A stretch of DNA of 64,000 bases from Kappaphycus alvarezii (Eukaryota; Rhodophyta; Florideophyceae; Gigartinales; Solieriaceae), in assembly GCA_002205965.3 (NCBI GenBank), contig NADL03000004.1, positions 434,001 to 498,000 on the forward strand, in the 5' to 3' direction. The translations under genes were made by a program, and so were the position numbers. Below, piece after piece: positions 8,026-50,555 of this stretch. Below the pieces are notes generated by a model. It searched no databases and had not been told where the DNA came from. It saw only the letters and a list, made by a program, of their open reading frames with translations. Numbering within the stretch: position 1 is the stretch's first letter; every line of letters starts with the position of its first letter.

Positions 8026-8137
8026 GTTGGAAAAAGCTAGCAGGGTACGTAATGCCGTAAGAGCATCGGAGATTACAGCCACATAAGAAATGTTGTGTTT
8101 TAGTCTTTCGGAATGAAGGGAATTTCTTCCCAAATAC

Positions 8138-32405: not shown

Positions 32406-34211
32406 AAATTACAGTAATGGACTTAATACAGAAGTATTGAGTTCCCACGGGTCTAGGCGAAAGTTTTGCCCAGCAAAAAGATCAGGAGTTCGTGTTCAAT
32501 AATACAGATCCAACACTTGACTAAAATCTTAGCTCAGAGTAAGCACACATCGTACTAATAAATTTTGAATGTCTTCATCAAAAAGGCCTCATCTCTGATT
32601 ACAAAATGACTATTATAAACATAAGAAACATGATACCAAAAAAATTCAAAAAATATTATTGCACGATTTGGAATTATTTCCTTCACTTTCAGGGAAGGTG
32701 TTTCGGAGCCACATGATCGTTTCTTAAGTTGATACGTATTCTTTATTACCTGGTACCAAACAGGAAAGACACCTGTAATTAAAGAAGGGATAGGAAAATT
32801 CACCCACGAAGCATGGGCTCGAAAGTTTAGGTATTTTAATTGGACAAAAGTTTGGACGGAATTTCCGCCGAGACTTTGGAATCAAAATTAATCAAATCTA
32901 CAAATACCTTTTAGTAGTCACTTAAGCCATAACAGTAAAATTTACGCCATTATTAAATTTATAAAAATGCTTATTTTGAAAACTTTAGAGCCACTTATTA
33001 ATCAACATGGAAAACAATATATCAAGGGATTTTTTTGAATTAAAAAATGTATAATATATTCAAATGAGTTTATTACAAACCCCTAAAACGAAACTTTTCA
33101 TCAAAGATCAGGTATGCAAAGAAAAGGCAGTATGAATGCTAATGGCTGATATAGTCTTAAAAATGCGAATGCGGAAAACTAAAATTTTTTTTAAGTCATA
33201 ACAGCTTAATTCGAATAAAAACAAATAGGTAAAATGCGGCACAACATTCGATGTACAAAATTAACAAAAAATATTTTTTGAAGATGTCAGTAGAGAATAA
33301 CTAGGTCATTCATTCTTTTCCATTTTCTTTACAATTTTTAAGACGATTCAGAAAAAATTATAACCTCTTTTTGAAGCGAATAATTATATTTTTGAAGACT
33401 TATTAGCTACTTTATTGGAAATAATCGAAAATAAATAAACCAAACGCCAAAAACTTGATACCTTTACAGTTAAGAACACAAAATAACTTTCGATCGCTTT
33501 TCATTGAATTTTGCCGTCTCAACATTCTTCTCATTCGGTTTGAGTCTTATGGTGGACCATTCAAGTCAGTCTGTGTCTTGTCGAAAAATTTTATTAGCAA
33601 TTCTTCCCGTTCTTTGGAGTAACTTCTTTAATTTATTGCAAAATGGCATCGAATCTAGAAAATAATGCAAAGAGGAACAATTCTAGTTCTATGCTCTCGT
33701 TTGGAGTTTATACACAGTCTTTTTTGATTCCTTTCTCTCTATAAATTATGCACTGAGTATGCAATGTACAGTGTACAATGTAGTTTCTATCGGCATCAGT
33801 TTCAATCACATGTTATATTTTAGACTCCTTCAAATAATCGCTAATTGTGTAAATGGGGGGTTAATTTACTGTGGTGGATATGTGGGTTGGTATCCAGTAA
33901 ATATGTACCGGAGCGTAGATATCGTATCATTGTCAAGCCAATCGCTAGTTTGTAGCATGGTTTCGGATTTTTTTTGTTTTATTAGAAGTCGTTTAGCTTT
34001 TTTCGGAATGGAATTTTTATGGGTTCTAGAACGTAGTTCCAGTGAACCACGGGTGGGAAGCCCGTCTTCGAACGCACGCTTGCATTTTAATGCCATTTTC
34101 CCACACCCTCCAGGTTTGTAGAGTATTCTATACCATTACTCGTAATTTATTGACTCTTTTCAGTATCAACCCATCGTTGATCAAGAAGTCTAGTACTGCA
34201 TTGTTATGATT
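32406..34211. other. AT-rich stretch between repeat copies A1 and B1
   Basis: No gene recognised. A GTACAGTGTACAATG word occurs near 33768. ORF 33759-34121 is AT-rich plus-strand sequence without domain. Confidence 0.4.
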
Positions 34212-34420
34212 CAATTAGTACGTGGAACTTACACGTGTATTGTCAGCAAAGTGCATTAACACGTACAGTCGTATTCTGTAAGCAACGTACCTAGTTTGTA
34301 TTCAGAGCCCCGCAACGGTCTATATAAAGTCCCCTGACCTGGTCCCCAAGGCCAGATAGGCATCGTTGATTGGAAGTACAACAGTCCTGGTCCGTGCTTT
34401 ACAACTTCCGAGTTAAGTTG
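34212..34420 (+). repeat. inverted-repeat family, copy B1
   Basis: Begins TCAATTAGTACGTGGAACTT, contains AGCAACGTACCTAGTTTG and GGTCTATATAAAGT, ends CAACAGTCCTGGTCCGTGCT. Inverted copy of A2 at 34615-34835. Confidence 0.75.
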
Positions 34421-34615
34421 TAGCATAAAATCGATTCTTCGATTTTATGAGATTCCGAGTTAAGTTGTAGCATAAAATCGATTTTACGATTTTAAGATTT
34501 TATGTTACAACCTGAAAATGAAGTTGTAATGCAGGGACCAGAACTGAGAGTAGCACGAGTGAAGTTGTAACATAAAATCGATTTTATGAATTTATGTTAC
34601 AACTTGACAATGAGG
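34400..34615. repeat. palindromic core between B1 and A2
   Basis: Several copies of AAGTTGTAGCATAAAATCGA and its complement; a perfect 18-bp palindrome CATAAAATCGATTTTATG lies at 34571-34588. Together with the flanking inverted copies this could fold into a long cruciform or hairpin. Confidence 0.7.
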
Positions 34616-34835
34616 TTGTGAAGCACGGACCAGGAATGATAGTAGCACAATCACCGATGCCTATCTGGCCTTGGAGACCAGGTCAGGGGCACTTTATATA
34701 GACCTTTGCGGGCTCTAAATGCAAACTAGGTACGTTGCTGACAACATACCACTGTACGTGTACGTGAAAACGCAAAATGCTGACTCTACACGTGTACATG
34801 CCACATACAAATTGAACACTAACATTATCAGAATT
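34615..34835 (-). repeat. inverted-repeat family, copy A2
   Basis: Contains GAAGCACGGACCAGG, GATGCCTATCTGGCCTTGG, CAGGTCAGGGGCACTTTATA and ACACGTGTACATGCCACATA; the reverse complement aligns with B1 and B2 over almost its whole length. Confidence 0.75.
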
Positions 34836-35009
34836 GGGCAGTAGGGAACAGGAGGTGGGTTGGCGCCTTTCGAGAAATTAATTCGGGGAGTCGGGTCCGG
34901 TGCCCAATTGGGCAAGATGGGCAAGGGACCTAAAAAGGGATGCGTCGTTCACATAAGAGGAGGCAGTCCGGGAGTTAAAGAGGAGTAGACAGACAGGGCG
35001 TAGGAAGGA

Positions 35010-35449
35010 ATGATGGACCAATTGGAGCGCGCTTGTGCAGTAGCGAGACAGGCTGTAAAGGGGATGGTGATGGTGTTGCGCCTAGCGAAGAAGATGGATG
35101 AGAAGGTTGAGGCAGTGGTCAATACGGAGGAGGAGAAGTTTGGAGCGCGGGACAAGGAACTACGATAGGCGATGATAATAGCGTTGTATGGAGTCCACAA
35201 CGTGGGAAAGACGCAAGTGTTGGAAGGGGAGTTGGTTGATTGCTGGACCGGACTTGGGAAGGGCTGCGTTCGCGGGAGGAGAAAGAAGCGGTATTCGTCA
35301 GAGAGGTGCGCCGCCGGGCACGAGGATGGTTGACAAGCAAGGTTGGGGTGGACGAGTTGCAGTTCCGAAGGAAGGCCGGGCACACGGGTGCGAAGGGGAA
35401 GGGAAAAACGAGTGGAACAGAGGATGCGGAGGCGGGCGCTACATTTTGA
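35010..35449 (+). pseudogene. decayed small ORF inside the inverted-repeat element
   Basis: From ATG 35010 a GC-richer frame encodes MMDQLERACAVARQAV followed by a Lys/Glu-rich helix, then a TAG at about 35166, continues ALYGVHNVGKTQVLEG, and after a frameshift near 35240 resumes as an Arg/Glu-rich segment (REEKEAVFVREVRRRARGWL) to TGA 35447-35449. It lies between copies A2 and B2, so it is probably the element's own gene. No family recognised; VGKT is too isolated to call a P-loop. Confidence 0.35.
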
Positions 35450-35526
35450 TGTGTTTTGTTTTTTTTTGTTATTGTTGTTGTATTTGTTTGAATTTTTAAT
35501 TTTACGCGAGGTGTGCACAAGGTAGG

Positions 35527-35720
35527 AATGTTAGGATTCAATTAGTACGTGGCATGTACACGTGTATTGTCAGAAAAGTGCATTAGCACGTACAGTAATA
35601 TTCTGTCAGCAACGTACCTAGTTTGCATTTAGAGCCCCGCAAAGGTCTGTATAAAGTGCCCCTGACCTGGTCTTCAAGGCGAGATGTGCAACACAGTGAA
35701 GTCGCTACAGAACTAATTAT
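35527..35720 (+). repeat. inverted-repeat family, copy B2
   Basis: Begins GGATTCAATTAGTACGTGGC, contains AGCAACGTACCTAGTTTG and GCCCCTGACCTGGTC, ends GCAACACAGTGAAGTCGCTA, which is the inverted match of the start of A1. Confidence 0.75.
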
Positions 35721-35864
35721 CACCGGTGCGGCCCCATTCCGGATACAGCACAGTACTGGGCTGCAAATGAATTTTACGAATTGTAATGTCCCACCTTACA
35801 CCGGCACCCCATATTTCAGCATGTAGCCCACTGAACTGTACAGTATGCTTTGATCCCGCACCAA

Positions 35865-37907
35865 TCACAGATATCGAAATGTGTGCGATACAGACAGTTC
35901 AGCATCTTCCTCAACCAGACTTTCTGTGTAGTGAGCCCAAAACGGGGGAAACACAACTGCGTCCCCTGCTTGCAGTATGACCTCAATCGCTTGAGACGCA
36001 CATTTTCCCCAGAAAGATTCAAACACATCAGTTTCCCGCCGCGTCAAATTAACTCTGGCGCGTCTATGCAGCGGATGACTAAGGGGATAAATGCCCATAT
36101 GTTCTAAACAATTGGGCGGAAAAAATATCATTCGCTTCGACCCACTGCGTTGCACCAGAACCGAATAAGAGGCGTCGAAGTGCAGCCCAGAGACTGTTCC
36201 GTGTGTGCTGACCCAAATGCGCTCTTGTTGTGCTATTGCGACAGTGCTCCTCGCTTGTTTAAAAAGTTGTTGACCACTACTCACTCTCGTTTGAATGTAG
36301 ATTTGCTCAGCAATGCTGTCCCCATAGTACAAAGGCTCCAATTCACACCCTTCTCGAAGCCGAGCAATCGCCTCGGTGGTAGGTATGGATCGCAACACGC
36401 TTGGCGGTTGAAACTGTTCAGACTGAATCCATTCGTGCGACCCGCGGCAGAAAATGAAAGTGCTATTTGGCGAAACCCGACACTGCACGGATAGTGTCGT
36501 CTTTTTTAAATTCTCCAAAATCGTTGCAGTGGTTTCCTCTCTTTGATCCCTCGACGATGCGATTCCCCTGAAAACCTTTGGTCTTGATTCCCTCATCAAC
36601 AGCCATTCTAAGGACTGTGAATTTGCATTCAGCCCAGCAAAAGCAACATCAGAGGGTTGCTCGTCAGGAATTCGCCTTTGGATAGCAAACGCAACAAGTG
36701 GTAATTTTGCTTTCCGATAGATTGGCGCTCTTTGCTCGCTCCCTCGTGACAATATTTCGTTCATCCAATATGCAAAATTTTCCGAGAAGAACTCGTAAAC
36801 TTTGCGAACTGAAGATTGCTTTGGAAGAAGGTCTGGAGACGTAGTCGAGTACGGTATTGCGCCGTCAAAAGCCGGAAGAGCAAAATTTCTTTTGATAAAG
36901 AGCTCTTCTACTATCTCCACCATGTTCCTCGCCACCTTGTAACCTTCTTTTAGAAATTCATCCGTTGAGAGCTCTGCAAATCCGCTCTCTGGACTGGCGC
37001 AAGCAATTTGCAGGGCAGCTAGCATAGTACCCGAATACTTTGGGTATGCTAGTGAGCTAAGTCTAAAGCAGGGGACAAGATCTCTGCTATGTTGGAACGT
37101 CACTTCGCTTGCCATGTCGGCAATGGCCCTCAACGACCTCTTGCAAATCCACTGAATAGCATCCACTTGCAGGGAAACATTTTGTGCAGCGGTACCCCTC
37201 TCCATAAGACGAATGAAGGAGCGCTCATCCCTGCGAATATTCATGGCAGTTGAATCGTCAGGCTTAGTTTTGACTTGTTGCCTCCATCTTGCCTCCCTCT
37301 TATCGTAAAGTGCAACAGAATAATTGCAAAGGAGGAAGTCTGTGCCCGATGTTGCGTTCACCGAGTTACTTTCCTGATGGCCCCTATATTGCTCTACGAA
37401 TCGCATGTCTGCTCGCGTAAAACTAAGTTTTCTTCTTGCATAGTTGGAAGCCTCTCGACGTGTTGCGTCCTTTTGCGTTTGCGAAATTGGTCGCTTTGAC
37501 AGTACTATAAGATCCAGATCAGATTTCCCGCCGCAAAGGACATGCCCTGCCGCGACTGAGCCTCGCACAAAAATTGCTACTATATCAGACGAAAAATTTC
37601 TGTCAAGAATGAGTTTGACAACTGGTTGCAGCTTCTCCTTGGTACTTGCAGAGAGTGCGAATGTATTTTCACTTGGAAAAGATCTATTGTGATCCAACTG
37701 AATGATACGACCAAAATCCTTCACGAATCCCTTACTGATTGCCTCTTCCAATGACTTGGCAACGCAAACAGGGCAGTGAGAAGAAACTCTGGGCTGAAAC
37801 GGCGGCTTCGTCCGGAATCTGGGTCCAATTCCCGGAGCTACAAACGATGAGAAAGCGGAGACAACATGGGGCGGCCTTATCCTCGACCGTTTTTGCCTTA
37901 GCGACAT
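35865..37907 (-). CDS. nucleotidyltransferase - JmjC/cupin-8 dioxygenase fusion protein (680 aa)
   Basis: Single uninterrupted frame from ATG 37907. Residues about 105-175 form a Pol-beta-type nucleotidyltransferase core: VRGSVAAG (Gly116-Ser117), then D130-L-D132, with Asp167 in RADMRF as possible third carboxylate. Residues about 210-320 look like the helical partner domain of bacterial nucleotidyltransferases (RSLRAIADMASE, SRDLVPCFRLSS). Residues about 560-680 form a cupin-8/JmjC domain: GLHFDASYSVLVQ supplies His576 and Asp578, FPPFWAHYTESL supplies His659, an HxD...H Fe(II) site for 2-oxoglutarate oxygenases. The middle (345-540) is unassigned. Predicted roles: NMP transfer to a protein, RNA or small molecule plus hydroxylation; substrate unknown. 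The 3' end lies 145 bp from repeat copy B2. The combination is unusual; I know no characterised homologue. Confidence 0.8.
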   Translation of the reverse strand: MSLRQKRSRIRPPHVVSAFSSFVAPGIGPRFRTKPPFQPRVSSHCPVCVAKSLEEAISKGFVKDFGRIIQLDHNRSFPSENTFALSASTKEKLQPVVKLILDRNFSSDIVAIFVRGSVAAGHVLCGGKSDLDLIVLSKRPISQTQKDATRREASNYARRKLSFTRADMRFVEQYRGHQESNSVNATSGTDFLLCNYSVALYDKREARWRQQVKTKPDDSTAMNIRRDERSFIRLMERGTAAQNVSLQVDAIQWICKRSLRAIADMASEVTFQHSRDLVPCFRLSSLAYPKYSGTMLAALQIACASPESGFAELSTDEFLKEGYKVARNMVEIVEELFIKRNFALPAFDGAIPYSTTSPDLLPKQSSVRKVYEFFSENFAYWMNEILSRGSEQRAPIYRKAKLPLVAFAIQRRIPDEQPSDVAFAGLNANSQSLEWLLMRESRPKVFRGIASSRDQREETTATILENLKKTTLSVQCRVSPNSTFIFCRGSHEWIQSEQFQPPSVLRSIPTTEAIARLREGCELEPLYYGDSIAEQIYIQTRVSSGQQLFKQARSTVAIAQQERIWVSTHGTVSGLHFDASYSVLVQRSGSKRMIFFPPNCLEHMGIYPLSHPLHRRARVNLTRRETDVFESFWGKCASQAIEVILQAGDAVVFPPFWAHYTESLVEEDAELSVSHTFRYL

Positions 37908-38122
37908 ATCGGTCTTGGGCTGTCTACCGCTTGAGGTCTTCTGCTACCGAAGACTTATTCTCAATCCAGGGTTTGCAGGTGAAAATCAGAGTAGCATTTC
38001 CTGCGGGGCTGTCTGGAGTGGATTTCCGAGCTCGCTAGCTAGATTCAATGTATTGTACGTACAAAAAGCGCCTTGAGTGCATTACAGATGAAAATATTCC
38101 TTACATTACTTCCATCTGAACG
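37908..38122. promoter_or_regulatory. presumed 5' region of the fusion gene
   Basis: The 215 bp between the ATG (minus strand) and the LINE fragment. Contains one moderately GC-rich part and no recognised element; labelled only by position. Confidence 0.25.
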
Positions 38123-38481
38123 ATGCCAACGTTTTCAACAATTAAGTTCACCACAAAGACACTCGCTTCGCGCACCGTTGCCGATGCAGCGAAAAGACGG
38201 AAAATAGGTGAAGCCTTCTCAGGACGATCCAAATTGGGATGGAAGTTTGCGCCGTTGGCCTTCAACTCGTTTGGATCGCCGTCGGCGACGACGCCGAAGG
38301 TAATCGACGAATACGCGGCCGCTGTCGCAACCCGCCCCGGATGTTGGACGGGAGGAGTGAAGACTCGGCTTTATCAGCAGCTTAGTTATACGATTTGGTC
38401 CACGTTGTGCTGCGTCTGTAATATGTCGTGCCCCATAACGCGCAGAGTTTAGCCACCCTATTCAAACCTAATTCTTTTAGG
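38123..38481 (+). pseudogene. LINE-like RT 3'-end fragment (third copy)
   Basis: Encodes GWKFAPLAFNSFGSPSATTP, KVIDEYAAAVA, GCWTGGVKTRLYQQLSYTIW and ends at TAG 38450-38452; the 3' tail AGCCACCCTATTCAAACCTA matches the minus-strand copy at 32.2 kb. About 85% identical by eye to 8822-9082. 5' truncated. The best preserved copy of this 3' end in the window. Confidence 0.65.
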
Positions 38482-38930
38482 TTTGATGCAGTGGGGTATT
38501 CAGGACTTTGCATGTTGAAACTGCATATATCTGTGGTAAAGTAAAGGCACACTTCACCGCAACTCTCTGCAACACCCACCTGCATCGGCCGTGAAGCGTA
38601 CATACTGCACTTTGTCTTGCGCGCTTCTCCTTTCCAGCTGCGCCATCATGATGACATTGAACAAATAACTCTACGAGTAGATGCGGATAGTTGCCGTACT
38701 ACTTTAAAACAGAGTCTACACTCAGTTTGCTACTCACACAGTAATTACATACTTCCGGAAAGCAATGAAATTTAGAAATCCTTGGGAGTCTAGCCAGTCG
38801 CTCCTAAAGGGAAATCAGCCTGTCATCCCCCTCTTCATAACAGAATGCCTTGGCTCGAATCTGCGACCTCGCTGAAAACTGTCATCGAAATAATCTCAAG
38901 TGACCTTTATTTTAGTCTTCCATATCAAAA
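38482..38930. other. intergenic, upstream of the FabZ-like gene
   Basis: No gene recognised; short ORFs only. Confidence 0.4.
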
Positions 38931-39487
38931 ATGGCCGCCCGTGCATCCGGCCGGATTGTACTATCCGAGGAACGGGTAAAGAAGCTAATTGCGCATCGCG
39001 AGCCCTTCCTTCTCATCCGCCACGCGATCGAAAACGTGGTCGGCGAGCACATCGTTGCAGTCGCGCGACAAAATGCAAAGTTGGACGTACCGATGCCGTT
39101 TCTTATGTTAGAAGGCATGGGACAGACGGGTGCAGTGCTGATCCGACAGGTTTGTAATGCCACTTATCCTAATTTCTGCTGCGTCTGCACTTGCGGAGCA
39201 TATGAGGTTCTAACGAGTAGTATGTGTTGGCTGTGTATTGCTGGACTGTGTACAACGTCCTCCGGTAGATGCCCATGTATGCTGACAAGCGGCTGGTGTC
39301 TTTGGCGGGTTTGAAGAACGTCAGGTGGATGAAGGATAGGGACCGGAAAGGGCAAGTGCTGTATACAGCACGGTTGTCAGGACGCGCGCGGAAACGGTTT
39401 GGTACTGTTAGCGCCCAAGCGCATCGTGATGGGGAGACTTTGTGCGTCGCAGATTTTCTCTTCTCGTTCATTGAAGATGTAGAATAA
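38931..39487 (+). CDS. FabZ-like hotdog-fold (3-hydroxyacyl-ACP dehydratase-like) protein, two exons
   Basis: Exon 1 is 38931-39149 (73 codons), intron 39150-39268 (GTTTGT...GGTAG, 119 bp, phase 0), exon 2 is 39269-39487 (TAA), total 145 aa, the usual FabZ size. LIAHREPFLLI (residues 20-30) matches the FabZ N-terminal motif LLPHRYPFLLV, and FLMLEGMGQTGAVLI (57-71) matches the central helix GVLxxEAxAQ with Glu61 kept; exon 2 supplies LAGLKNVRWMK and the last strands. However, the loop with NEPFFxGHFPG is missing, so the usual catalytic His is absent. Either a divergent ApeP-like dehydratase/thioesterase-type hotdog or a non-catalytic relative. No clear transit peptide; location uncertain. Confidence 0.65.
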
Positions 39488-40374
39488 ACCTGAGCCTGGT
39501 CTTGCGGATTAGTAACCGTTCTGTTGACGCTGCGTAAAGGCTATGAATGAGGGTGCGAAACACGTATCCCATTCGCTTAGCTCAATGACAAGGCGCGTAG
39601 CGGTTACCGGCTAGTTGCAAATCAGCACGGTCAGAATTGTTGCGTTGAGGCTGGACATATGGAATCTGTGGAAGAAACAGCCTACAGTCCAAGGGAAGTA
39701 ATCCGTGGGAGACCTGAAAACGCAGCGCAGGCAAGTCGACTGTATTGCGAGCATCCTTGTCTCTGGTCAAGAGATTATTGTGCCGAGATTGTCGAGCAGC
39801 CATGTTTTTCGAAGGCCGGGACATGGCAAGGGTGATCCCGCAAATCCCAATGCGATCTGGTTAGAACGCGAGGTATCCAGTCATTACGGTACTGGACAAA
39901 GGGGATTCGCTAACTACGCACCGTTTCGAGCTGTTTGAGAATAACTATTCAGTGCGAATGGCGTGGTCCCTAATACTCACCCGAGGAGGATTTTGGATGG
40001 TTGGTAGGACGAACACTTTTCCGATTAAAGCAAGTGTACGGTATATAGTTTGTGGGTGCAATGAAGGATTCTGTTTCGTAAAGAGACGCGTGCGACATGC
40101 TGAAGCGTAAGACGTGCTGAATCCGTGTGATGAACACGCCTGCAGTTTCAAGTGATCTAAAGATCTTCAACATGCAACATTTGTCCGCGCAGATCATCGT
40201 CGCTCTTAGACGGTTACTTGACTGCAGATTGCTTGCACGCGATACCAAGAATTCATACACCCCTAACAAACCTGTTGTAGGTGAACTTTACGTTGCCTGT
40301 CTCAACCGACTGTTTACCTGGATCCCAAAAAGACCGCAACAGCACATACATAGCCTTACAGCCACAGCACACAC
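39488..40374. other. intergenic between FabZ-like and RPL32 genes
   Basis: Several ORFs of 68-118 codons overlap on both strands without recognised domains. A TAGCTCAATGACAAGG stretch at about 39576 vaguely resembles a tRNA A box but no matching B box or stems were found. Confidence 0.4.
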
Positions 40375-40776
40375 CTACTCAGTCTCCTCGGCCTTCACAC
40401 GTGCGCCCGGATTAGTGATTTTGATATCCAGCTCCTTCGCGCGGTCAATGATAGCGATCCTCTTTCGGGACGACACGGCATGAGCAATCTCCGCACAGTA
40501 AGTCCTGTTCTGCATCATGAGGACCTCAAGTTCGTTGACATTGTGAACCAAGAACTTGTACAAACCAGTGGGAAGCATATGTCGGGTCTTCTTGTTAGAC
40601 CCATAGCCGATGTTAGGCATGGAGACCTTTCCACGCCATTTGCGCCTGACACGAGAGTCGATACCCTTTTGCCGACGCCACGATTCCGGAACGCGAATCT
40701 TCGTATCGGACTGATGGCGCTTAAACTTGCGCGTCCTTTTCTTGACGATCTTCAAGGTGTTGAGAGACGTAGGCAT
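40375..40776 (-). CDS. RPL32: 60S ribosomal protein L32 (eL32)
   Basis: 133 aa, intronless in the coding part, ATG 40776, TAA/TAG end at 40375. Family signature present throughout: [14 protein letters not shown] (11-24), [10 protein letters not shown] (38-47), [11 protein letters not shown] (53-63), [15 protein letters not shown] (66-80), [14 protein letters not shown] (93-106), TNPGARV near the end. Normal eL32 length. Component of the cytosolic large subunit, where it sits on the solvent side binding 25S/28S rRNA. The bases before the start (GCTTAG then ATATCACG) could be a splice acceptor, so a 5' UTR intron is possible, as often in ribosomal protein genes. Confidence 0.95.
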
Positions 40777-41575
40777 CGTGATATCTAAGCAAATGTGTCA
40801 TTCAGCAAATCGCAGCATACGTGTTAGTAAAGAGTTGCTGCTTCTGCAGGGACGGAAAAGATCCCGACGACTGCAAAATGATTCGGATGCACAAGACAGA
40901 TTCAACGTGCTGAGCTTCTTTCCATGACCGGGGAACCTGTTGTACGTGTTAAGTTGAACCTGTTGATCCGCGCGTATGATTTGCTGAAAGGATGTAAACG
41001 CCTCAGGGAATGGTACTACGCGCCTCGGCAATGCAGAGGATGCAAGAAAGTCAACATGATCGACTTACCTAAAACGTTCAATTCTGCTGTGTAGGGTGTT
41101 TGAGTGCCTTACCGACGGCCGCTCGTGTCGACGAAGAAAGGGTAGCGGCGTATGCCAAACGTCGACAAGTCGAATGTGCCTGCAGTAGCCAGAATATGTT
41201 AAACTGTCGACGGCGTCCTCCCTAGCAACCCTAATTTGGAGTCTCGAAAAAAACATTCAAAATACTTACTTCGAAGCATTCAGAAAAATAATTTAATTAA
41301 TCAAATATCCCAACCACTTGGTCACACTATTTGATCCTTCAAGCTTTAATCGCTTACAGAAACCAATTCGCGCCAAACTAGGGCCCTGCCTTCCTCAGAG
41401 GAATTAAGACTTCTCCATCACCTTGCCTATGGTTCGTGAATGAGGCCAAGCCATTATACTTAACCTTAAGCCTCGTCAACATCCCCGTTTGCTGCAGCAT
41501 CACATCTACGACCAAGGATTCTACCGCTTTGAACTCGCTACAAGCAGCCCAATCTATCTCATCTTTCAGAAAACA
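40777..41575. promoter_or_regulatory. divergent intergenic region between RPL32 and BDP1
   Basis: 800 bp shared upstream region of two divergently transcribed genes involved in protein synthesis. It may contain a 5' UTR exon of RPL32. No specific site recognised. Confidence 0.35.
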
Positions 41576-42763
41576 ATGGCGTCCACAGACCCCGCAGACT
41601 CTTCGGACCCCGCGCCCACTGTAACAAATGAACCACCGCCGGCCACGCGCCACATGACTCTTACAGAAATCATTTCCGGGGTGAAGCGACGCAGTGGTGC
41701 ATTCCCGATGTCCAGTTCCGAGAAATCCAAGGAGGCTCGCAGTAAACAACGTCGTTCAGACTTTGCTGTCCCGGAGGAAGAGCCGGCCCCTGCCACACCT
41801 CGCCCGTCTACGCCACCTCCACAGGATGAAGAGCCTCCCCAGGATCAGGCGGTCGCTCCGCAAGTCACACTGGATGCTAAGGGCAATATTGTCGTCGATC
41901 CTGATAGTCTCGTAGTTAGTGAAAACACAGCCCGCCCATCGGAAGACGACCACAGGACGGTCACACTTGATAGTGAAGCGCTTGGCACTCGCATTACCAG
42001 CGCGACGTATGGAAAACGTGAATCTGCACACAAATGGAGCGAACAGGAGACCGACAGGTTTTACCAAGCATTGAGGATGTTTGGTACTGATTTTTCGCTA
42101 ATGGAGCGCACATTTCCAAAACGCAGTCGAAGACAACTGAAACTCAAGTTCAAGCGAGAGGAAAAGGAGAATCCGAAGCGGGTGGACGAGACTTTGAATG
42201 CACCCTCACTACCAATCCCTCGAATCATTGCGAATGTCCCCGCATCCGAGGGGTCGCAGGTTACGGCTGGGGACGGCGTCACGAGATCGGCTGGTCAGCA
42301 ACAAGATTCGGGCGATAACGCGGCTATGGGAAGTAAAGGAAACAGCGCGGGAGGGCAAGCAGATGGACAAGACGCTGCCGGAAAAGAAACCAGTGGCGAT
42401 CAAGCTGTCCGGACAGAAGGCCGGGGTGAGGAGGCTCATGAGGGAAACGGTGGTGAAAATGCAGCCATCCCGAAAGAAGCCAGTACAGAGGGTCAGGAAG
42501 GGAATTCGGTTGACAATGTAGCAGTCAAAGAGAAGGGCAACGCAGAGGGCAACGAGGGGAAAGTTATGGGAAAAACGGACGTTGGAACGGAAGGCAGCGG
42601 CGAAGAATGCGCGGGAAACAGGAGTAAACAGGACGCAGGTAATGAAGAGGGTTGCGCGGAGGGAGTGGAGAAAAAGGTTGCGGAGAGTGCGGAGGGCAAA
42701 AAACAAGGTAGCGCCGAGGAAAACGCCGAAAAGAGCAGCGACCGACAGACCGGAAGTGACTAG
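41576..42763 (+). CDS. BDP1: TFIIIB subunit BDP1 (B'' SANT-domain protein)
   Basis: 395 aa from ATG 41576 in context AAACAATGGC; the frame is open 29 codons further upstream, but that part looks like 5' UTR. Residues about 152-209 form the extended SANT domain with the BDP1 signature HKWSEQETDRFYQALRMFGT, DFSLMERTFPKRSRRQLKLK, FKREEKENPKRV. Just upstream, VTLDAKGNIVVDPDSLVV (about 97-114) is also typical of BDP1. The N-terminus is Pro/Ser-rich and the last 190 residues are a low-complexity Gly/Glu/Lys/Ala tract of imperfect repeats (EGNEGK, AEG). BDP1 joins TBP and BRF1 in TFIIIB to recruit RNA polymerase III to tRNA and 5S genes. Ends TAG 42761-42763; no intron seen. Confidence 0.9.
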   Translation: MASTDPADSSDPAPTVTNEPPPATRHMTLTEIISGVKRRSGAFPMSSSEKSKEARSKQRRSDFAVPEEEPAPATPRPSTPPPQDEEPPQDQAVAPQVTLDAKGNIVVDPDSLVVSENTARPSEDDHRTVTLDSEALGTRITSATYGKRESAHKWSEQETDRFYQALRMFGTDFSLMERTFPKRSRRQLKLKFKREEKENPKRVDETLNAPSLPIPRIIANVPASEGSQVTAGDGVTRSAGQQQDSGDNAAMGSKGNSAGGQADGQDAAGKETSGDQAVRTEGRGEEAHEGNGGENAAIPKEASTEGQEGNSVDNVAVKEKGNAEGNEGKVMGKTDVGTEGSGEECAGNRSKQDAGNEEGCAEGVEKKVAESAEGKKQGSAEENAEKSSDRQTGSD

Positions 42764-43149
42764 GGAAGTTTGATCACAACAAATTTTGTTGTGCTCAACT
42801 CCTAGAATGGGACGCAGGCTTTCGCTGGAAAGAGAGCTTGAAATGCAATCGCGAGGAATCGGGACTGGGATAAGCAAGCAAAAATGGATGGGTTTGAGAA
42901 AGGGAAGAGGGCAACGGCGATGTTATTCTTCAGGGATCATCACGGATCCTGACAAATCTTGAGGTTTAAAAAATAGTGTGGATAGTTTTATACTGTACAT
43001 TTTGTGGCTTCTGACAAACTGTTTTGTCGAACAATCGCTTTCCAATCGTTGCTAATGATCTCCAAAGGGTGTACAGAAATCAACTGGACCAGAAAAATTG
43101 CCCAACTCGTTTCAGCCTCAATTGAGATAGCCAGCAGCCACTTCATAAA
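42764..43149. other. intergenic BDP1 - fibrillin
   Basis: No gene recognised. An ATACTGTACATT word lies near 42990, about 160 bp 5' of the fibrillin leader. Confidence 0.4.
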
Positions 43150-43897
43150 ATGAAACCGTTCACAGCATTCCTCTCCCTCACTTCGGCCCATATCCCCGGC
43201 CCCTTTCCACAGGTACCAACCGCAGCATCCGCGGCCTTGAACCCACACTTCCCAAACAACGACATGCAGCATCCAGGCATGTCCAAACCCCTCGCTGCTC
43301 AGCCCAAACATCCGGAGTAGCGCAACTTCGCCAGGAAATTAAAAGTCTTGTCGGGGTGGATCGAGGCATTTTCGGTCTGGAAGATTCGGACCGCGCCTCA
43401 CTTGATTCGCTAATACGCACGGTAGAAGCAGAGACGCCAGTGTCGGAACCAACTGCTAAAAACGCAAAGGTTGCTCATGGGTCTTGGCGGTTGATCTATA
43501 CAAATTGGAAATTTTGGGACAGAGGCGCATCAAGTTGGCGATTGCGACATCTCGCAAGTCGGGATTGGTCAAGCTGGGTGATATTTTTCAGATTATTGAC
43601 GCGGAGAAAAGGGAAAGTCGAAACGTTGTGGAGTTTGAAGTGATGGGGAGGGTGAGGGGTACCTTTTCTATCGATGCTGAGTACGAGGTGGAGAGTGCCG
43701 TGAGAGTAAACGTCATGAAAAAGGGTGCGCGATTGGAACCGGAGAGGTTGGAGATGATGTTGGGGGAAAACGTGGGACTCTTGACCGATATATTTAATCC
43801 GGAGGGATGGTTGGACATTACATATATCGATGAAGGACTGCGGATTGGGAGGGATGGCAAAGGGAGAGTATTCGTTTTAGAACGGATACAGCATTGA
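43150..43897 (+). CDS. plastid-lipid-associated protein / fibrillin (PAP) family, frame-disrupted
   Basis: Frame with LVGVDRGIFGLEDSDR, SLDSLIRTVEAETPVSEPTA and GSWRLIYTN matches the PAP_fibrillin N-terminal half; the other half (LGQRRIKLAIATSRKSGLVK, FQIIDAEK, LDITYIDEGLRIGRDG, VFVLERI) is in the next frame and ends TGA 43895-43897. The join falls at about 43502-43508, where one T appears missing from an AAATTTGG run. A leader starting MKPFTAFLSLTSAHIPG at ATG 43150 lies in a third frame; it could join through a short intron (candidate 43213-43334, GT...AG) or another indel. Phe at position 4 suits a red algal plastid targeting signal. Fibrillins bind lipids in plastoglobules and thylakoids. 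Start and structure are uncertain; family call is firm. Confidence 0.75.
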
Positions 43898-44237
43898 TGC
43901 AAACTTCTCTACTCACGCTCAGTCGCTTCACTCATGTGACGGGGCCTCTGCCGTGCAGCATCCGTCGCCAATTTGCGTCTTTTTCGTCTGTAAAGAGTAA
44001 TCCAGCATGTCCCAATGCACGGATATCTGTAAAGACCGTAGCAAAGAGTTGCGGCCGGATTCTCTACAACAGTGTGCAAGTAGTCTCACTTGCTATGAGA
44101 ATTTTGCTCTCGCAGGAGAGAAACTACATGAGTTTATACAACTCGCAACCTCATTCGCCATCTAATCAATTATACAATTTCGAATCTCAAGTGAACAACA
44201 TTTGTTGCGGAAGGCATGCCATCCCAGTGCTTATCAA
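43898..44237. other. intergenic fibrillin - riboflavin kinase, with small ORF
   Basis: A 114-codon ORF (ATG 43897 to 44241) overlaps the fibrillin stop and starts MQTSLLTLSRFTHVTG with an Arg/Ser-rich, presequence-like beginning, but then has no recognisable domain and is not in frame with the next gene. Probably chance. Confidence 0.3.
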
Positions 44238-44855
44238 ATGAGGAACCCAGCCTTTGCCCGACCCTTTGTCTTAAAGTCCGCCCGCCAAATTTCAACATCA
44301 CTCCATCCCCACCTGCTCTGTCGTCGATTCCCATCTCAAACCCCCTCCCGCTCCCTCCAAATGGTCGGTAACGAATTCTCTTCTATCGATCAGATTGACT
44401 GGCTTCCAGAACCCATCACTGTCTCTGGCAGGGTACAACGTGGTTTCGGTCGCGGTTCACGCGATCTAGGCACGCCGACCGCCAATCTTCCCGGCACCCT
44501 TCTCGATGATGTTCCCCAAGCTCACCGCGACGGCGTGTATCTCGGCTTTGGTCGCGTACCAAAGTACGGTACTCAAGTGGTAAAAATGGTTGCCAATCTC
44601 GGTCGCAATATCACATATGGTGATGTCGAAAAGCGCGTTCTAGAGGCATACCTCATGTCTGATATCTTTGACCAAGAGTTTTACGGCGAAGAAATGCGTC
44701 TGTGTATTATTGGGTATATGCGCCCCGAGCTCAAGCTTAACTCTTTGGACGAGTTAATCGCTCATATCAAGAACGATGTCGATATTTCGAGTGCAGCACT
44801 GGACTTACCGACGGCACTTCCATTCCGATCGCACCCATCATTAGTCGCGCCTTAA
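44238..44855 (+). CDS. riboflavin kinase (ATP:riboflavin 5'-phosphotransferase)
   Basis: 205 aa from ATG 44238; an internal ATG at residue 42 (MVGNEFSSID) would give the bare catalytic domain, so residues 1-41 (Arg/Ser/His-rich, no acidic residue) may be an organelle presequence or the second start may be used. Flavokinase motifs: GRVQRGFGRGSRDLGTPTAN with PTAN at 80-83 (Mg-ATP site), YLGFGRV (101-107), MVANLGRN, Glu136 in VLEAYLM (position of the catalytic Glu), FDQEFYGEEMRL, and the C-terminal SLDELIAHIKND. Converts riboflavin to FMN. A monofunctional eukaryotic type with no FAD synthetase or phosphatase domain attached. No intron; stop TAA at 44855. Confidence 0.9.
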   Translation: MRNPAFARPFVLKSARQISTSLHPHLLCRRFPSQTPSRSLQMVGNEFSSIDQIDWLPEPITVSGRVQRGFGRGSRDLGTPTANLPGTLLDDVPQAHRDGVYLGFGRVPKYGTQVVKMVANLGRNITYGDVEKRVLEAYLMSDIFDQEFYGEEMRLCIIGYMRPELKLNSLDELIAHIKNDVDISSAALDLPTALPFRSHPSLVAP

Positions 44856-45116
44856 AGCATTGGACAACGGTATCACGCTTCTGCGTGTCATTTCTAGATG
44901 ACACGAGTTTATTCAACGCACCATATTTGCGGAATACGTATGCTTTCACATGAAGTGATCTTTCCCCTTTAAAGAACAGCGCGGCACCCACTGCCTACAT
45001 CACCCGGTCCTCAGGAGGAACAGCGTATACCCTAATCTAAATATTAACGGGCCCGTTCTCTACTGACAACTGCCGTTGCAAAACTGCCTAAGATTGTTTT
45101 TGACGGTCCATAAGCT
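44856..45116. terminator. convergent 3' intergenic region
   Basis: 260 bp between the 3' ends of riboflavin kinase (+) and the mitochondrial carrier (-). It must hold both transcript ends; no specific poly(A) signal is distinctive. Confidence 0.3.
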
Positions 45117-46076
45117 TTATGCTAGACGAAATCGCAGTGCACAATGTCTTCTTCGCCTCGCACAAACTGTCACTCTGGTTCCTCTCCCGCCAATCCTGAC
45201 CATACCATTCGGCTTACTCACGGCAACTCCCCCCTCAGTTTTCCCCTGCAGTACGGTGTCCCCTCCCCTACCCTTGAACCCCAGCACCCAAGCCTTGCAT
45301 ACTTCGTAACTTGAAAAGCCAATTGCGGCAAACAGGGCGGCCCATATAACCCTAGGCCTCGTGCCAACGTACAATCCCGCAACGCCCTCTGTTCTGACAA
45401 CAGCCAGCATGGCCCTCCAAACACCAGTGCCCTCTGCGATCCCACCAGTGGCCAACCGTGTCTTGACAACATCAAATGGGGTCGAACATGCACTTGCAAT
45501 TGCCCCCGACAAAGCGCCCGCAACCACAAAGTGCAGTCGATTAGTTGCAGCATCACGACATCCCAACTGTTTCAAAAGCAACTTGATTTCCTCATACATG
45601 GCAAAGCGAATCATGGTAGACGGAATATTGCGCAACAAAGTAGCCTGATAGCCACGATAAAGGCCTGCAAAGCCCGAGGTACGAATAACAGCAGCGGCAG
45701 CTGCGAAGAAGCGACCACGGTGTAACCCAGCTTGCATGCGTTGTTTAACGACCTCCTTGGGAACAAACAAGACACTCGAAGCGAGATTACCACAGGAAGC
45801 GGAAATCGCGGTAAGGGGTATGCGGGATTGAAGTGAATTCCATGCGGAAGGGAAGGAGGCCTTCAAGTAGGATTTGACAAGCTCGTAGACGCCGAAATAG
45901 AGGGCGGATGAAAGGGCGGAACCGACTAGGGCGGGGGTAAGCCTGCGTAAAGGGCGAGAGGACCGCGGGATTGGATGATTGTGCGAAATGCAGGGGTGAC
46001 GCCTTGGTAGATTGGGGCTGGTTTGACGGAGGGTCTTGATGGTGTCCAATGGGTGAAGAAGGGTGTTGGTGAACAT
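45117..46076 (-). CDS. mitochondrial carrier family protein (SAM-carrier-like), frame-disrupted
   Basis: The frame ATG 46076 to 45117 (319 aa) has three carrier signatures: HPLDTIKTL (8-16), VPKEVVKQRM (105-114) and TPFDVVKTRL (199-208), with FRFAMYEEIK-type helix ends; PKEVVKQR is characteristic of S-adenosylmethionine carriers. Two problems. First, helix 1 starts upstream (LALAGALAG, 46077-46105) where no in-frame ATG exists; ATG 46189 is in another frame across a GGGGT microsatellite. Second, residues about 21-45 are out of frame: the neighbouring frame gives YQGVTPAFRTIIQSRGPLAL, the expected loop, implying compensating base losses near 46011-46017 and 45939-45942. The C-terminus (Arg-rich) is longer than usual. 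Would exchange metabolites across the inner mitochondrial or plastid membrane. Confidence 0.75.
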   Translation of the reverse strand: MFTNTLLHPLDTIKTLRQTSPNLPRRHPCISHNHPIPRSSRPLRRLTPALVGSALSSALYFGVYELVKSYLKASFPSAWNSLQSRIPLTAISASCGNLASSVLFVPKEVVKQRMQAGLHRGRFFAAAAAVIRTSGFAGLYRGYQATLLRNIPSTMIRFAMYEEIKLLLKQLGCRDAATNRLHFVVAGALSGAIASACSTPFDVVKTRLATGGIAEGTGVWRAMLAVVRTEGVAGLYVGTRPRVIWAALFAAIGFSSYEVCKAWVLGFKGRGGDTVLQGKTEGGVAVSKPNGMVRIGGRGTRVTVCARRRRHCALRFRLA

Positions 46077-46136
46077 GCCTGCTAGGGCGCCTGCTAGGGC
46101 GAGACGGAGATTGCGGTGTGGGGGTAGCGGGGTTGG

Positions 46137-46172
46137 GGTTGGGGTGGGGTGGGGTGGGGTGGGGTGGGGGTG
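46137..46172. repeat. (GGGGT)n microsatellite at the carrier gene 5' end
   Basis: Seven or so consecutive GGGGT/GGGGGT units following two GGGGTT-like units. On the carrier's strand it would encode a Pro/Thr/His-rich stretch; unit-number change (5 bp) alters the frame between ATG 46189 and the carrier. Confidence 0.85.
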
Positions 46173-46558
46173 GGTCGAGGAGTTGGCATCGTGGATCGAG
46201 GGGATTTGTGGCGAGGACGGGGATGGGAGAAGGAGAATGGAGAGAGGGTATCGGGGGGTGGGGCTCGGTAGCTAGAGGGAAGACCCTTGGGCGTCGGGCG
46301 AAAGCGTAGGATACAGCACACTGTACTGTACAGTACACTGTACAGTAGTTGGTCAAGGAGAGTGAGGAATCGTTTTGGTTGATTGTGCACATTTGAGTTG
46401 TGCTCCATTCGCTGAGAGCGGCGCCAAATATCTCAAGAGGTACAGTATGAAAATCTGAAAACCTGTCATCCCTAAAATCCACACACTCAACTTTCATCTC
46501 CAAATAACAAACGCCCCAGTTCCCCTCAACCTCCGCTCATACGTACCCCAATTCGCTC
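46173..46558. promoter_or_regulatory. upstream region of the carrier gene with TACTGTACAGTA palindrome
   Basis: Carries a perfect 12-bp palindrome TACTGTACAGTA at 46324-46335 followed by CACTGTACAGTAG, about 140 bp upstream of ATG 46189. No function known; the same word occurs upstream of other genes here. The FKBP gene ends at 46559, so this is also its 3' flank. Confidence 0.4.
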
Positions 46559-47227
46559 TTAACCCGGCCCCCGCACCTTTTTCAGCTCCACATCAATGAC
46601 CAAATCCCCCCCCTTCTTGAACCGTCTCGCGTTCAAAACAGTCGCAAACAATCGTCTCCTGTCCCCAAAATCCTTCGGTAGCGGTCCCTTCACCTCATCC
46701 ACATACCCAAATTCCGCGGGAATGACCAACCGTCGTTTACCCCCTTCCCTCATACCCATCACCCCCAATTCGAATCCCTCAATCAACCCTCCCTTCCCCA
46801 ACTCCACCACCTCCTCCCCAGCATCCTCCCTCTGAATAGGCCACCCATACCTATCCGCAAGTCGTCCCGTCCACCGTACTGTCAACCTACTACCCACACT
46901 CGCCACACGCCCGCTTCCCACACGAAAATCACAGATTTCCACACCCGTACATGAAGGCCTAGAATCCGGGCACGGTAAACGATGGTAAGCCAGCGGCCTA
47001 GTGGATTCCAACCCCTTTGTTTCAAAAGCTGACACACCCCCTGCGTCGCAAAATACCGCTGCAGCGAATGAAAATGACATCAGCCGCAGTGTCACCCGAC
47101 GTGGGAGATACGCACCCGATGGACGGGTTACAGTCGCATTTGCTTGCGAATGCGCAACGGTTAACCATGGGGAGGGGTTCTTGTTACAGGTCGGCGGCAC
47201 AGGCGATGCGCCGATGAATGCATGCAT
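46559..47227 (-). CDS. FKBP-type peptidyl-prolyl cis-trans isomerase, probably thylakoid lumen
   Basis: 222 aa from ATG 47227, intronless. The FKBP domain occupies about 98-218: GSRLTVRWTGRL (112-123), GLIEGFELGVMGMREGGKRR (147-166), VIPAEFGY (168-175), and the closing strand DLVIDVELKKV. The active-site loop has PLPKDFGDRRR instead of the canonical IPP segment, as in several divergent plant lumen FKBPs, so isomerase activity is unsure. The first 97 residues are extra: Ser/Thr/Arg-rich, then a hydrophobic segment RLMSFSFAAAVFC (48-60), then GVSAFET, the shape of a bipartite plastid/lumen signal. Catalyses or chaperones proline isomerisation in photosystem assembly (inference). A GTGCTGTACTGTATAC word lies about 200 bp upstream. 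Confidence 0.85.
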   Translation of the reverse strand: MHAFIGASPVPPTCNKNPSPWLTVAHSQANATVTRPSGAYLPRRVTLRLMSFSFAAAVFCDAGGVSAFETKGLESTRPLAYHRLPCPDSRPSCTGVEICDFRVGSGRVASVGSRLTVRWTGRLADRYGWPIQREDAGEEVVELGKGGLIEGFELGVMGMREGGKRRLVIPAEFGYVDEVKGPLPKDFGDRRRLFATVLNARRFKKGGDLVIDVELKKVRGPG

Positions 47228-48609
47228 GGTGTGGTGAAAAAGGCGTGCCGCGATGGATGTGTCGTATCAGCGGTAATCGCCATGTCAGCCGTGCATCAAC
47301 GGAGATCGTACAATTTGTACGATGCCCGGAAAACCACACAACTCATAGTTCAATTACAGTGTAAAGTTTCACTATGAGGCGTGCCTGCCCGCCCGGCGTG
47401 GACAGGAAAGGGGAGGTATCTTACAGTGCTGTACTGTATACTTTGTTTTTATTTTATCCTGTACAGGTAATTACTTTACTACTCTTTCCTGAAGCAAAGG
47501 GGGGGAATTGGGTTAAATTGGGTTTACTTGAATGTGTTGGTATACGTAATTTTCCTGCTAAGAGCAATCGCAGACTAGGACTACTGTAAAAAGGGTAATC
47601 ACTTACTGTACATACCCTCAGAACGGAGGTTCTCTGGAATACACTGTTTTCACAATTTCAAGTTGCGGCCTAAGTCTCGCTCAAAACTCCTTCCAACAAA
47701 CAACTGGCGTTATAATGACGAGCGAACAATGTTCGCTCGTCACGCGGCGAGACTCGTCCAGAATTGGGTTGGTTTACTGTGACTAATGGAAAGGTTGGGA
47801 GTCCTCTGTACTTGTAATGAAGCAAAGTACAATACTGTATGTGGCACAACGATACCATAGGTCTGGAGCGGTGATTGCCTCTACTTGAATCTTGAAGAGG
47901 AATGACGCTTTATTGTTTGAAGACAAGTCCGCACTACACATGACCTCGGATTCTGCTAGACGGACGACTCCGGGCAATGGCTGAACCAATTGCCCACTCA
48001 AGCGAGAAAGGGACCGGAAGAAAACTCCACCACTTGAACCGAAGATTCAGGAGGCTTAAAAAACTCCCGCTGTAAGCACAGAGGCTTACAGATAGAGACG
48101 GCGACGACAACGGCGAGAACATCGGACGAGCGAGCTTGACGACAAGCCATATCATACCATGAATCTTCTTCCTCAGATTCAGTCGCACCGTTCAGTTTTG
48201 AAAGTAGATCTTGATGCGACACCTCGTATGTAATGTATTGCGCGTGTGAGGGCGTGCGTTGACAATCACTTTTGTCGTGATAACAGAGCCCGTTTGTTTT
48301 CGAGTTGACCGCTTGGATGTGCTCAACTAAGGAACCGTCCAATGAAAACTCCCGCGTGCGCACGAGGAACCGAAAAAGGCTTTTTCTGTCTAGTATTTTG
48401 CATTCCAGTCTGTCTGACGACTGTGCAAAGATATTACGTAAGCACGTACTTCACTTCACCCTGATTGGCTATTAGCGATATGAATGAACTGGCTGTGGAA
48501 GCAGCCTGTTTAGCACTGCATAGATTAGAAGGGCAGGTGCGCCTGCGATCCTCCAGGGGAGAGAAAAAGGAATAATGGCCGTTGACGGAGGACCCTCTCT
48601 AATGGAAGC
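47228..48609. other. intergenic, upstream of FKBP gene to gypsy insertion
   Basis: Contains CTGTACTGTATACT (about 47430) and TACTGTACAT (47606) words. A 121-codon minus-strand ORF (47998-48363) has an acidic SEEEDSWYDMACRQARSS segment but starts with GTG and matches no family. The last bases, ATCAC at 48610-48614, are the gypsy target duplication. Confidence 0.4.
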
Positions 48610-48614
48610 ATCAC

Positions 48615-48843
48615 TGTGAGCTCGACGTGTACAGTTGTACACGTGTGTGCTCTCTTTGTTTCTGGTCCACCAATTTGCAACGGACTTTTATTTGCTGGGG
48701 AATATAAGAACTGGAGTGGTCTCAGGGAGAGAGAAGAGAAAAAAGAGAGTGGCAGAGTAAAGACGGGAACTCTGTTTTGTTGTGATTCGTCTCCACATTG
48801 CGTCTGGGAACGCTGAGAAAAGCGGACAAGTACACTGCTTTCA
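48615..48843 (+). repeat. 5' LTR of the Ty3/gypsy element (229 bp)
   Basis: Starts TGTGAGCTCG and ends CTGCTTTCA (TG...CA). Contains a 9-bp inverted repeat ACGTGTACA / TGTACACGT at 48625-48644 and a CACGTG box (48640-48645); TATAAG at about 48704 could be the TATA element of the U3 promoter. Confidence 0.9.
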
Positions 48844-48844
48844 T

Positions 48845-48862
48845 TGGTACTTCTGTCGAGGG
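48845..48862 (+). promoter_or_regulatory. candidate primer binding site
   Basis: TGGTACTTCTGTCGAGGG begins one base after the 5' LTR; the leading TGG complements a tRNA CCA end. Which tRNA is not known without a tRNA search. Confidence 0.6.
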
Positions 48863-48894
48863 TCGATTTTGCGGATGTCTCGATTCCAACTAGG

Positions 48895-49784: not shown

Positions 49785-49795
49785 CGAAGAGAACG

Positions 49796-50555
49796 ATGAC
49801 AGACCGGGAGGATCCGATGGGGATCAGCAGAATCATCAACGTGCCAAGACAGGACCCCGCCATGAAGGAGCCCAAGAATAATGCCAAGAAAAAAAGGGCC
49901 AAGAAGAAAACAGGTAAGGGCATTGGTAGCAAGAGTCTGGAGGGCTTCGTGGAGAGGTACGATGTGGAAGCAGGCTTTGCCCAAGCGAATGCAGGAGTAT
50001 CATTTGGACAGATCCTCAGGGGTGACCTGAGGGATGCCGACAAGGTTCTGCGAAAGTTGTTGAAGTCCAGAGCTGGAAGAGTATCCGTTGTGAATGAGCT
50101 GTTGGAGGAGAGTTCTGATGAAGAGGGAGTCCTTCCTGGCCAAGGTGTAAATCATGAAGTCCTAGGTGCGGGCCACACTGCAGGCCCTTCGAATCGTCAG
50201 GGCTGGTCTTGCTACCAGCGAGACGGAAGGGCGAAGATTGCGCATGGTATCCGTGAAAGTGTACGGAAGTCAAGTCAAGGCTCTCTTGGATACTGGGGCA
50301 TTACCTAACATCATGTCGCGTAATTTGTGTGAAGAACTTCACCTGAATCCGACTGAGACGGCGCGGCGGATCAAAGTTGCGAACGGTGCGATGGCAAGGG
50401 TCCTCAGTGAAGTCAGCGGGGCTTCGGTCACTTTTGATACGTTGACAGTCCCGCTCTCATTCCTAGTGTTGGATGATTCTCCTTTTGACCTGATCATTGG
50501 AACCCCGCCATGGAGGCCCTGGGTGCGCGCATTGATTTGCCGCGGCTGTCGGTAA
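49796..50555 (+). pseudogene. gypsy linker and aspartic protease
   Basis: A basic Lys-rich linker (49860-49930) is followed after a frame change by VKVYGSQVKALLDTGALPNI (about 50253-50312) with the retropepsin active site DTG, then LVLDDSPFDLIIGTPPW, the conserved C-terminal I-G motif. The frame changes again at about 50515. Confidence 0.75.

What the first reader, a model, noticed from the sequence alone, without database searches (positions are those of the whole stretch)
35865..37907. Nucleotidyltransferase fused to a JmjC/cupin-8 oxygenase
One intact 680-codon frame joins a Pol-beta-type nucleotidyltransferase (GS at 116-117, D-L-D at 130-132) plus its helical partner domain to a C-terminal HxD...H dioxygenase domain (His576, Asp578, His659). 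The NTase half resembles bacterial stand-alone proteins, so a bacterial gene may have been captured and fused. Retained catalytic residues at both ends and no stops suggest an active bifunctional enzyme of undescribed substrate. Domain motifs are seen; family names are from knowledge; bifunctionality is inference.
Basis: partly seen in the sequence, partly recalled or inferred. Interest (0 to 1): 0.75.

Follow-up and report, generated by a model that had tools for sequence, protein, structure and literature searches.

The report
Red-algal nucleotidyltransferase–oxygenase fusion protein
A red alga carries one intact gene that joins a distant relative of bacterial nucleotide-transferring enzymes to an iron-dependent oxygenase of the FIH/JmjC kind, in one possibly organelle-bound protein whose substrate is unknown.

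Summary
Window 37907–35865 (-) is one intact 680-codon frame. The C-terminal half (440–673) matches Cupin_8/JmjC (Pfam E 2.5e-16; FIH E ~5e-11), with H576, D578, H659 and K591 in FIH's iron and 2-oxoglutarate positions; only its C-terminal part matches in every search. The N-terminal half is a distant Pol-beta nucleotidyltransferase: below Pfam's cut-off, but best of 10,000 targets (E 3e-5) against a profile of 90 bacterial stand-alone proteins, with G116-S117, D130, D132 and D167 kept. Its helical partner is collinear and predicted helical, but not significant by sequence. The first 53 residues lack acidic residues (44 of 20,000 shuffles), as in organelle presequences. A second, diverged genomic copy (97% identical, pN/pS 0.26) indicates purifying selection in both halves; its one-base deletions look more like assembly errors than decay. 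No other gene like the N-terminal half was found in this genome, and no match seen covered both halves; other eukaryotes could not be searched. Recent bacterial capture is not supported. Likely a real two-domain enzyme; bifunctionality, targeting and substrate are inference.

The parts
35865..37907 (-). CDS, 680 codons, NTase-Cupin_8 fusion protein (P0001)
   Evidence: purifying selection between two genomic copies
37749..37907 (-). residues 1-53: basic N-terminal extension without acidic residues, possible organelle presequence
   Evidence: 10 K/R, 0 D/E; leading acid-free run of this length in 44 of 20,000 shuffles. Targeting itself not tested, no predictor run.
37383..37652 (-). residues 86-175: Pol-beta-type nucleotidyltransferase core
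   Evidence: bacterial-family profile E 3.1e-5 in 10,000 targets, aligned at 100-169; NCBIfam ANT_3pp_Ic E 9e-4, far below its cut-off; AF2 ten-residue blocks of pLDDT 70-88 over residues about 90-169
37512..37520 (-). D130-L131-D132, metal-binding carboxylates of the NTase (role recalled)
   Evidence: invariant in 57 of 57 rows of A3 and 8 of 8 rows of A1, this protein included
37407..37409 (-). D167, possible third carboxylate of the NTase (role recalled)
   Evidence: invariant in 57 of 57 rows of A3; not kept in L018 (Streptomyces) or, by eye, in L019 (Niallia)
36873..37382 (-). residues 176-345: helical partner domain of the NTase
   Evidence: AF2 helices, blocks of pLDDT 61-89 over residues about 230-309; collinear with bacterial proteins; not significant on its own by sequence
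36591..36872 (-). residues 346-439: linker of unknown fold
   Evidence: open frame; 2 nonsynonymous and 2 synonymous changes between copies over 346-440, too few to test; AF2 mostly below pLDDT 50
35868..36590 (-). residues 440-680: Cupin_8 / JmjC Fe(II)/2-oxoglutarate oxygenase domain
   Evidence: Pfam PF13621 E 2.5e-16 whole protein, 6.1e-17 domain alone; FIH E about 5e-11, JMJD5 E 7e-5. The N-terminal part of the profile (12-120) aligns only.
36174..36182 (-). H576-F577-D578, iron ligands (HxD)
   Evidence: aligned to FIH H199/D201
35931..35933 (-). H659, third iron ligand
   Evidence: aligned to FIH H279

Best explanation
A genuine single-gene fusion. The chain probably starts with an organelle presequence, followed by a Pol-beta-type nucleotidyltransferase (ANT/AadA-like core plus helical substrate-binding bundle), a linker, and an FIH/JMJD5-like Fe(II)/2-oxoglutarate hydroxylase. 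The N-terminal half should bind NTP and metal ions through D130/D132(/D167) and pass a nucleotidyl group to a hydroxyl or amine of an unknown acceptor. The C-terminal half should hydroxylate a protein or small molecule with O2 and 2-oxoglutarate. Fusion suggests that both act on one substrate or pathway, perhaps in sequence. Shown: frame, domains, residues, purifying selection in both halves. Inferred: catalysis of both halves, coupling, targeting.
For: Frame far beyond chance. Cupin_8 over its cut-off with the HxD...H triad and K591 at FIH K214's place. NTase profile hit ranks first of 10,000. A search of the whole 336-Mb genome with a Vibrio stand-alone NTase returned one match, this gene (weak, E 0.19). 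G116, S117, D130, D132, D167 invariant over the 57 rows of A3. Between two genomic copies: 26 nonsynonymous against 30 synonymous changes, neutral p 9e-7; p 0.004 for residues 1-345 and 1e-4 for 441-680 separately, with the whole gene's ratio of sites used for both.
Against: No activity, transcript or protein data. NTase below Pfam's gathering score. Helical domain not significant alone. Whole-chain AF2 unusable (pLDDT 34); NTase model pLDDT 56 and no Foldseek match at E<=0.001. The bacterial family's 'VNGD' and 'WGYWLKHH' stretches are not clearly kept. D167 is missing in two bacterial relatives. The N-terminal part of the Cupin_8 profile aligns in one of three searches. The second copy carries 12 one-base deletions and a 2-base insertion in the CDS.
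Confidence: 0.55

Rival explanations
1. Only the oxygenase half is catalytic; the NTase-like half is a degenerate binding or dimerisation domain.
For: NTase family motifs beyond the core are eroded; Pfam score below cut-off; the helical domain is diverged beyond detection.
Against: G116-S117, D130, D132 and D167 all kept, unlike what decay of an active site would give; changes between the two copies in residues 1-345 show purifying selection.
Confidence: 0.25
2. Two neighbouring genes or transcripts read as one frame (gene-model artefact).
For: No transcript could be checked; the linker has too few changes to test coding; promoters between the halves were not searched for.
Against: No stop or frame change over 680 codons; in the second copy none of the 668 compared codons became a stop by substitution.
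Confidence: 0.06
3. A bacterial NTase gene was captured recently and fused to an algal oxygenase.
For: The NTase relatives found are bacterial and stand-alone; no other gene of this NTase family was found in the alga.
Against: Identity about 17-25%; GC3 of the NTase segments (0.40-0.48) is like the rest of the gene (0.41-0.48); no close donor in 398 genomes of one phylum. Other phyla and eukaryotes could not be searched. An ancient transfer is not excluded.
Confidence: 0.08
4. The gene is decaying: the second copy is already a pseudogene and this one may follow.
For: 12 one-base deletions and a 2-base insertion in the CDS of the C679 copy; 5 of the 12 deletions do not lie at a run of three or more equal bases.
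Against: One-base deletions exceed insertions 47 to 10 over the whole block of about 11.5 kb, in other genes and between genes too, and are not enriched in this gene (p about 0.27): assembly error is likelier. Substitutions favour codon position 3 (14, 9, 33), with no stop by substitution.
Confidence: 0.06

Closest known systems
Bacterial stand-alone 'nucleotidyltransferase domain-containing protein' family (e.g. Vibrio WP_152471065.1, Azotobacter WP_198868263.1)
   Same: GS...SDLD core, an Asp at the KIDxD position, same order of core and helical bundle
   Different: bacterial ones are about 240-275 aa, with no oxygenase domain; identity about 17-25%; the alga lacks clear WGYWLKHH and VNGD stretches
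Aminoglycoside/lincosamide nucleotidyltransferases ANT(3'')/ANT(9), ANT-3,9, LinB
   Same: core motif and two-domain plan; among the top weak profile and fold matches
   Different: scores far below family cut-offs (18.8 bits against 545 for ANT_3pp_Ic); no reason to claim drug modification
FIH (HIF1AN) and JMJD5 Cupin_8/JmjC hydroxylases
   Same: HxD...H iron triad, Lys at the 2OG carboxylate position, 'hP..r' stretch between strands
   Different: the chain ends six residues after the FIH alignment, without FIH's C-terminal dimerisation helices (recalled); S582 and S674 in place of FIH N205 and N294; N-terminal NTase fusion
HEPN-MNT toxin-antitoxin proteins
   Different: Z in the range the tool calls common; partner genes were not searched for

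Membership tests
Pfam PF13621 Cupin_8 / JmjC Fe(II)/2OG oxygenases | score above Pfam's curated cut-off | tested here: met
   60.8 bits against 27.4, profile 12-242 of 252; 62.8 bits for the domain alone, profile 120-242
Pfam PF13621 Cupin_8 / JmjC Fe(II)/2OG oxygenases | HxD...H iron triad and basic 2OG-binding residue | tested here: met
   H576, D578, H659, K591 in the FIH alignment
Pfam PF13621 Cupin_8 / JmjC Fe(II)/2OG oxygenases | 2OG-dependent hydroxylase activity | not testable with these tools
   needs an assay
FIH (asparaginyl hydroxylase) | C-terminal helical dimerisation domain (recalled) | tested here: not met
   only 6 residues follow the last aligned column, 674
Pol-beta-type nucleotidyltransferase superfamily | hG[GS]...[SD]Dx[DE] motif plus a third carboxylate (motif recalled) | tested here: met
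   G116-S117, D130, D132, D167; 57 of 57 rows of A3; D167 absent in L018 and L019
Pol-beta-type nucleotidyltransferase superfamily | significant profile match | tested here: met
   E 3.1e-5 in 10,000 targets with a 90-sequence profile; but Pfam NTP_transf_2 below cut-off
Pol-beta-type nucleotidyltransferase superfamily | fold of the core | tested here: inconclusive
Bacterial stand-alone NTase family of P0002 | collinear helical C-terminal domain | tested here: inconclusive
   collinear in MAFFT alignments; no better than shuffles alone
Aminoglycoside nucleotidyltransferase ANT(3'')/ANT(9) | NCBIfam curated cut-off | tested here: not met
   18.8 against 545 bits; 12.2 against 340 bits

The most novel reading that the evidence does not exclude
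A two-step organellar enzyme in which the FIH-like half puts a hydroxyl on a protein or metabolite and the ANT-like half then caps that hydroxyl with a nucleotide (or the reverse order): an oxygen-dependent 'hydroxylate-then-nucleotidylate' modification that I know of from no call and no recalled work.
Probability: 0.12. Interest if true: 0.75.

Novelty: new variant of a known kind. Interest (0 to 1): 0.42.

Why it matters
Both domains are known kinds, but no match seen in the bacterial, phage and plasmid searches covered both, and four paper searches for the pairing held no paper. Fused enzymes often act on linked reactions, so the fusion offers a testable lead to the substrates of an uncharacterised bacterial NTase family and of algal FIH-like oxygenases. 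It is a curiosity of red-algal biochemistry rather than a new kind of system.

Tried and rejected
Rejected: chance ORF; aminoglycoside-resistance gene (one search scores far below cut-offs); phage origin (one weak cupin-only hit among 50,697 phage records; single-protein pattern scans of viral contigs with either half found no relative, though the bacterial NTase family does occur in 4 viral contigs); contamination by a bacterium (the gene sits in a 1.2-Mb contig, near Myb, riboflavin kinase, mitochondrial carrier, FKBP and retroelement frames, and in a diverged second block).

Dropped before counts: L101 and L104 (match length not a multiple of three) from the 84 loci; codons with gaps or stops from the substitution counts; 28 of the 84 loci left out of A3; 94 of the 174 relatives were not kept by the tool. 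Two of the 84 bacterial loci have 171 and 187 open codons upstream of the match; not examined.

Full report
WHAT IS THERE. The finding's coordinates are right. On the minus strand, 37907 to 35865 is one frame of 680 codons from ATG to TGA, open for only 12 codons before the ATG. In 60 first-order Markov simulations of window 34001-54000 the longest stop-free run was 274 codons, against 692 observed.

SOURCE. The window is G000:C4:434001-498000; G000 has 336,021,096 bases in 884 contigs. A table in PMC7073580 (passages seen) lists Kappaphycus alvarezii, a red alga, at 336,721,358 bp, far above the other red algae in that passage. Neighbouring frames are eukaryotic: Myb DNA-binding protein, riboflavin kinase, mitochondrial carrier, FKBP, and a reverse transcriptase/RNase H frame.

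C-TERMINAL HALF. Residues 440-673 match Pfam Cupin_8 at E 2.5e-16 (60.8 bits, cut-off 27.4; profile 12-242 of 252). With the domain alone, and in the genome search, only profile 120-242 aligned, so the N-terminal part of the domain is less certain. The best solved relatives are FIH at E about 5e-11 and JMJD5 at 7e-5; C2orf60 (TYW5, name recalled) is at 0.19. In the printed FIH alignment H576, D578 and H659 fall on FIH H199, D201 and H279, and K591 on K214; FIH T196, N205 and N294 fall on S573, S582 and S674 (residue roles recalled). The chain ends six residues after the last aligned column, so FIH's C-terminal dimerisation helices (recalled) are missing: it may work like such a hydroxylase but is not an FIH.

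N-TERMINAL HALF. Pfam alone does not establish it: NTP_transf_2 scores 15.4 bits on the whole protein and 17.8 on the domain, cut-off 21. The NCBIfam lead was ANT_3pp_Ic, E 9e-4 over residues 85-152 but 18.8 bits against a cut-off of 545. A weak plasmid hit (E 0.1) led to a 255-aa Vibrio protein, and from it to a bacterial family: 67 plasmid records at E<=1, 20 of them covering 80% of the query, with ANT(9) and ANT(3'') genes among the weakest of the 60 listed; 174 stretches in genome contigs, of which 80 were kept; and 4 in viral contigs. I built a profile from 90 sequences (82 of the 84 loci plus 8 plasmid proteins). Among 10,000 targets (the protein, its reversal and 9,998 shuffles) the protein ranked first, E 3.1e-5 against 0.13 for the best shuffle, aligned at residues 100-169. 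A core-only profile gave E 4.8e-6 for residues 1-350. hhalign gave probability 88%, E 2.9e-6 over 43 columns. Conversely, a search of the whole 336-Mb genome with the Vibrio protein returned one match, this gene, at a weak E of 0.19.

A SECOND COPY. The own-genome search found a second copy on C679. Fourteen collinear, inverted blocks above 700 bits link the window (2 to 64000, with gaps, the largest 1544-9257 and 47464-54765) to C679 at about 1328-1391 kb: 94% identity over window 35718-47463, and 81-91% in the other blocks. In the CDS the copies are 97.2% identical, with 14, 9 and 33 substitutions at codon positions 1, 2 and 3 (13, 9, 34 in another alignment), 26 nonsynonymous and 30 synonymous changes (pN/pS 0.26), neutral p 9e-7; separately p 0.004 for residues 1-345 and 1e-4 for 441-680, while the linker has only 2 and 2 changes. 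So both halves have been under purifying selection. The C679 copy also has twelve 1-base deletions and one 2-base insertion, but the surrounding block of about 11.5 kb has 47 one-base deletions and 10 insertions, in other genes too, with no enrichment here (p about 0.27). Seven of the twelve deletions lie at runs of three or more equal bases, where 35% of positions do. Uncorrected read errors explain this better than decay; raw reads would decide.

HOW ALONE IS IT? In this genome the Cupin_8 search gave 15 matches; in the frames over the midpoints of the ten loci returned, only this gene's frame holds an NTase-like motif. Other exons were not examined, some of the ten are pieces of one gene, and the C679 copy was not among the matches. 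NTP_transf_2 gave six matches that I read as poly(A)/uridylyl-type polymerases; this gene was not among them. In 398 genomes of the phylum of G001 (the genome of L071, Roseococcus; Pseudomonadota by recall) the NTase half gave 3 hits at E<=0.01, one a stand-alone relative (L116); in 200 of that phylum the whole protein gave 4 hits at E<=1e-6, all oxygenase only. No match seen covered both halves. Other bacterial phyla could not be used as centres, and no other eukaryotic genome could be searched.

MECHANISM. Residues 1-53 hold ten K/R and no D/E; a leading acid-free run that long occurred in 44 of 20,000 shuffles, which fits an organelle presequence, though no predictor was run. The best reading is an organellar protein whose NTase half binds NTP and metal and transfers a nucleotidyl group, and whose oxygenase half hydroxylates with O2 and 2-oxoglutarate. 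That both act on one substrate is inference from fusion; hydroxylation followed by nucleotidylation is the boldest form.

VERDICT. A real, selected gene with a domain pairing not met in the searches made here. Recent bacterial capture is not supported. Known kinds of domain, new combination as far as tested, unknown substrate: moderate interest.

Noticed in passing
window 2-64000 vs G000:C679 about 1328-1391 kb: Fourteen collinear, inverted blocks (94% in the gene block, 81-91% elsewhere) pair the window with C679; other genes are also doubled (Cupin_8 loci C620/C460/C619 and C1/C467; NTP_transf loci C38/C710 and C61/C585). The assembly seems to hold diverged haplotypes or subgenomes.
   Followed up: partly
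window 47464-54765: About 7.3 kb with an RT/RNase H frame (51677-52714) faces only about 1.2 kb in the C679 counterpart: likely a retroelement insertion in one copy.
   Followed up: no
window 38931-39311 (+): Frame that reads by eye like the start of a FabZ-type dehydratase, divergent from the fusion gene; Pfam gave no match to this piece.
   Followed up: no
G000:C679 about 1339909-1351606: One-base deletions outnumber one-base insertions 47 to 10 relative to the window: sign of an unpolished contig.
   Followed up: partly
L021 1300-1358 (-): On a Duffyella plasmid a CDS annotated 'cupin domain-containing protein' lies beside the stand-alone NTase gene, on the other strand.
   Followed up: no
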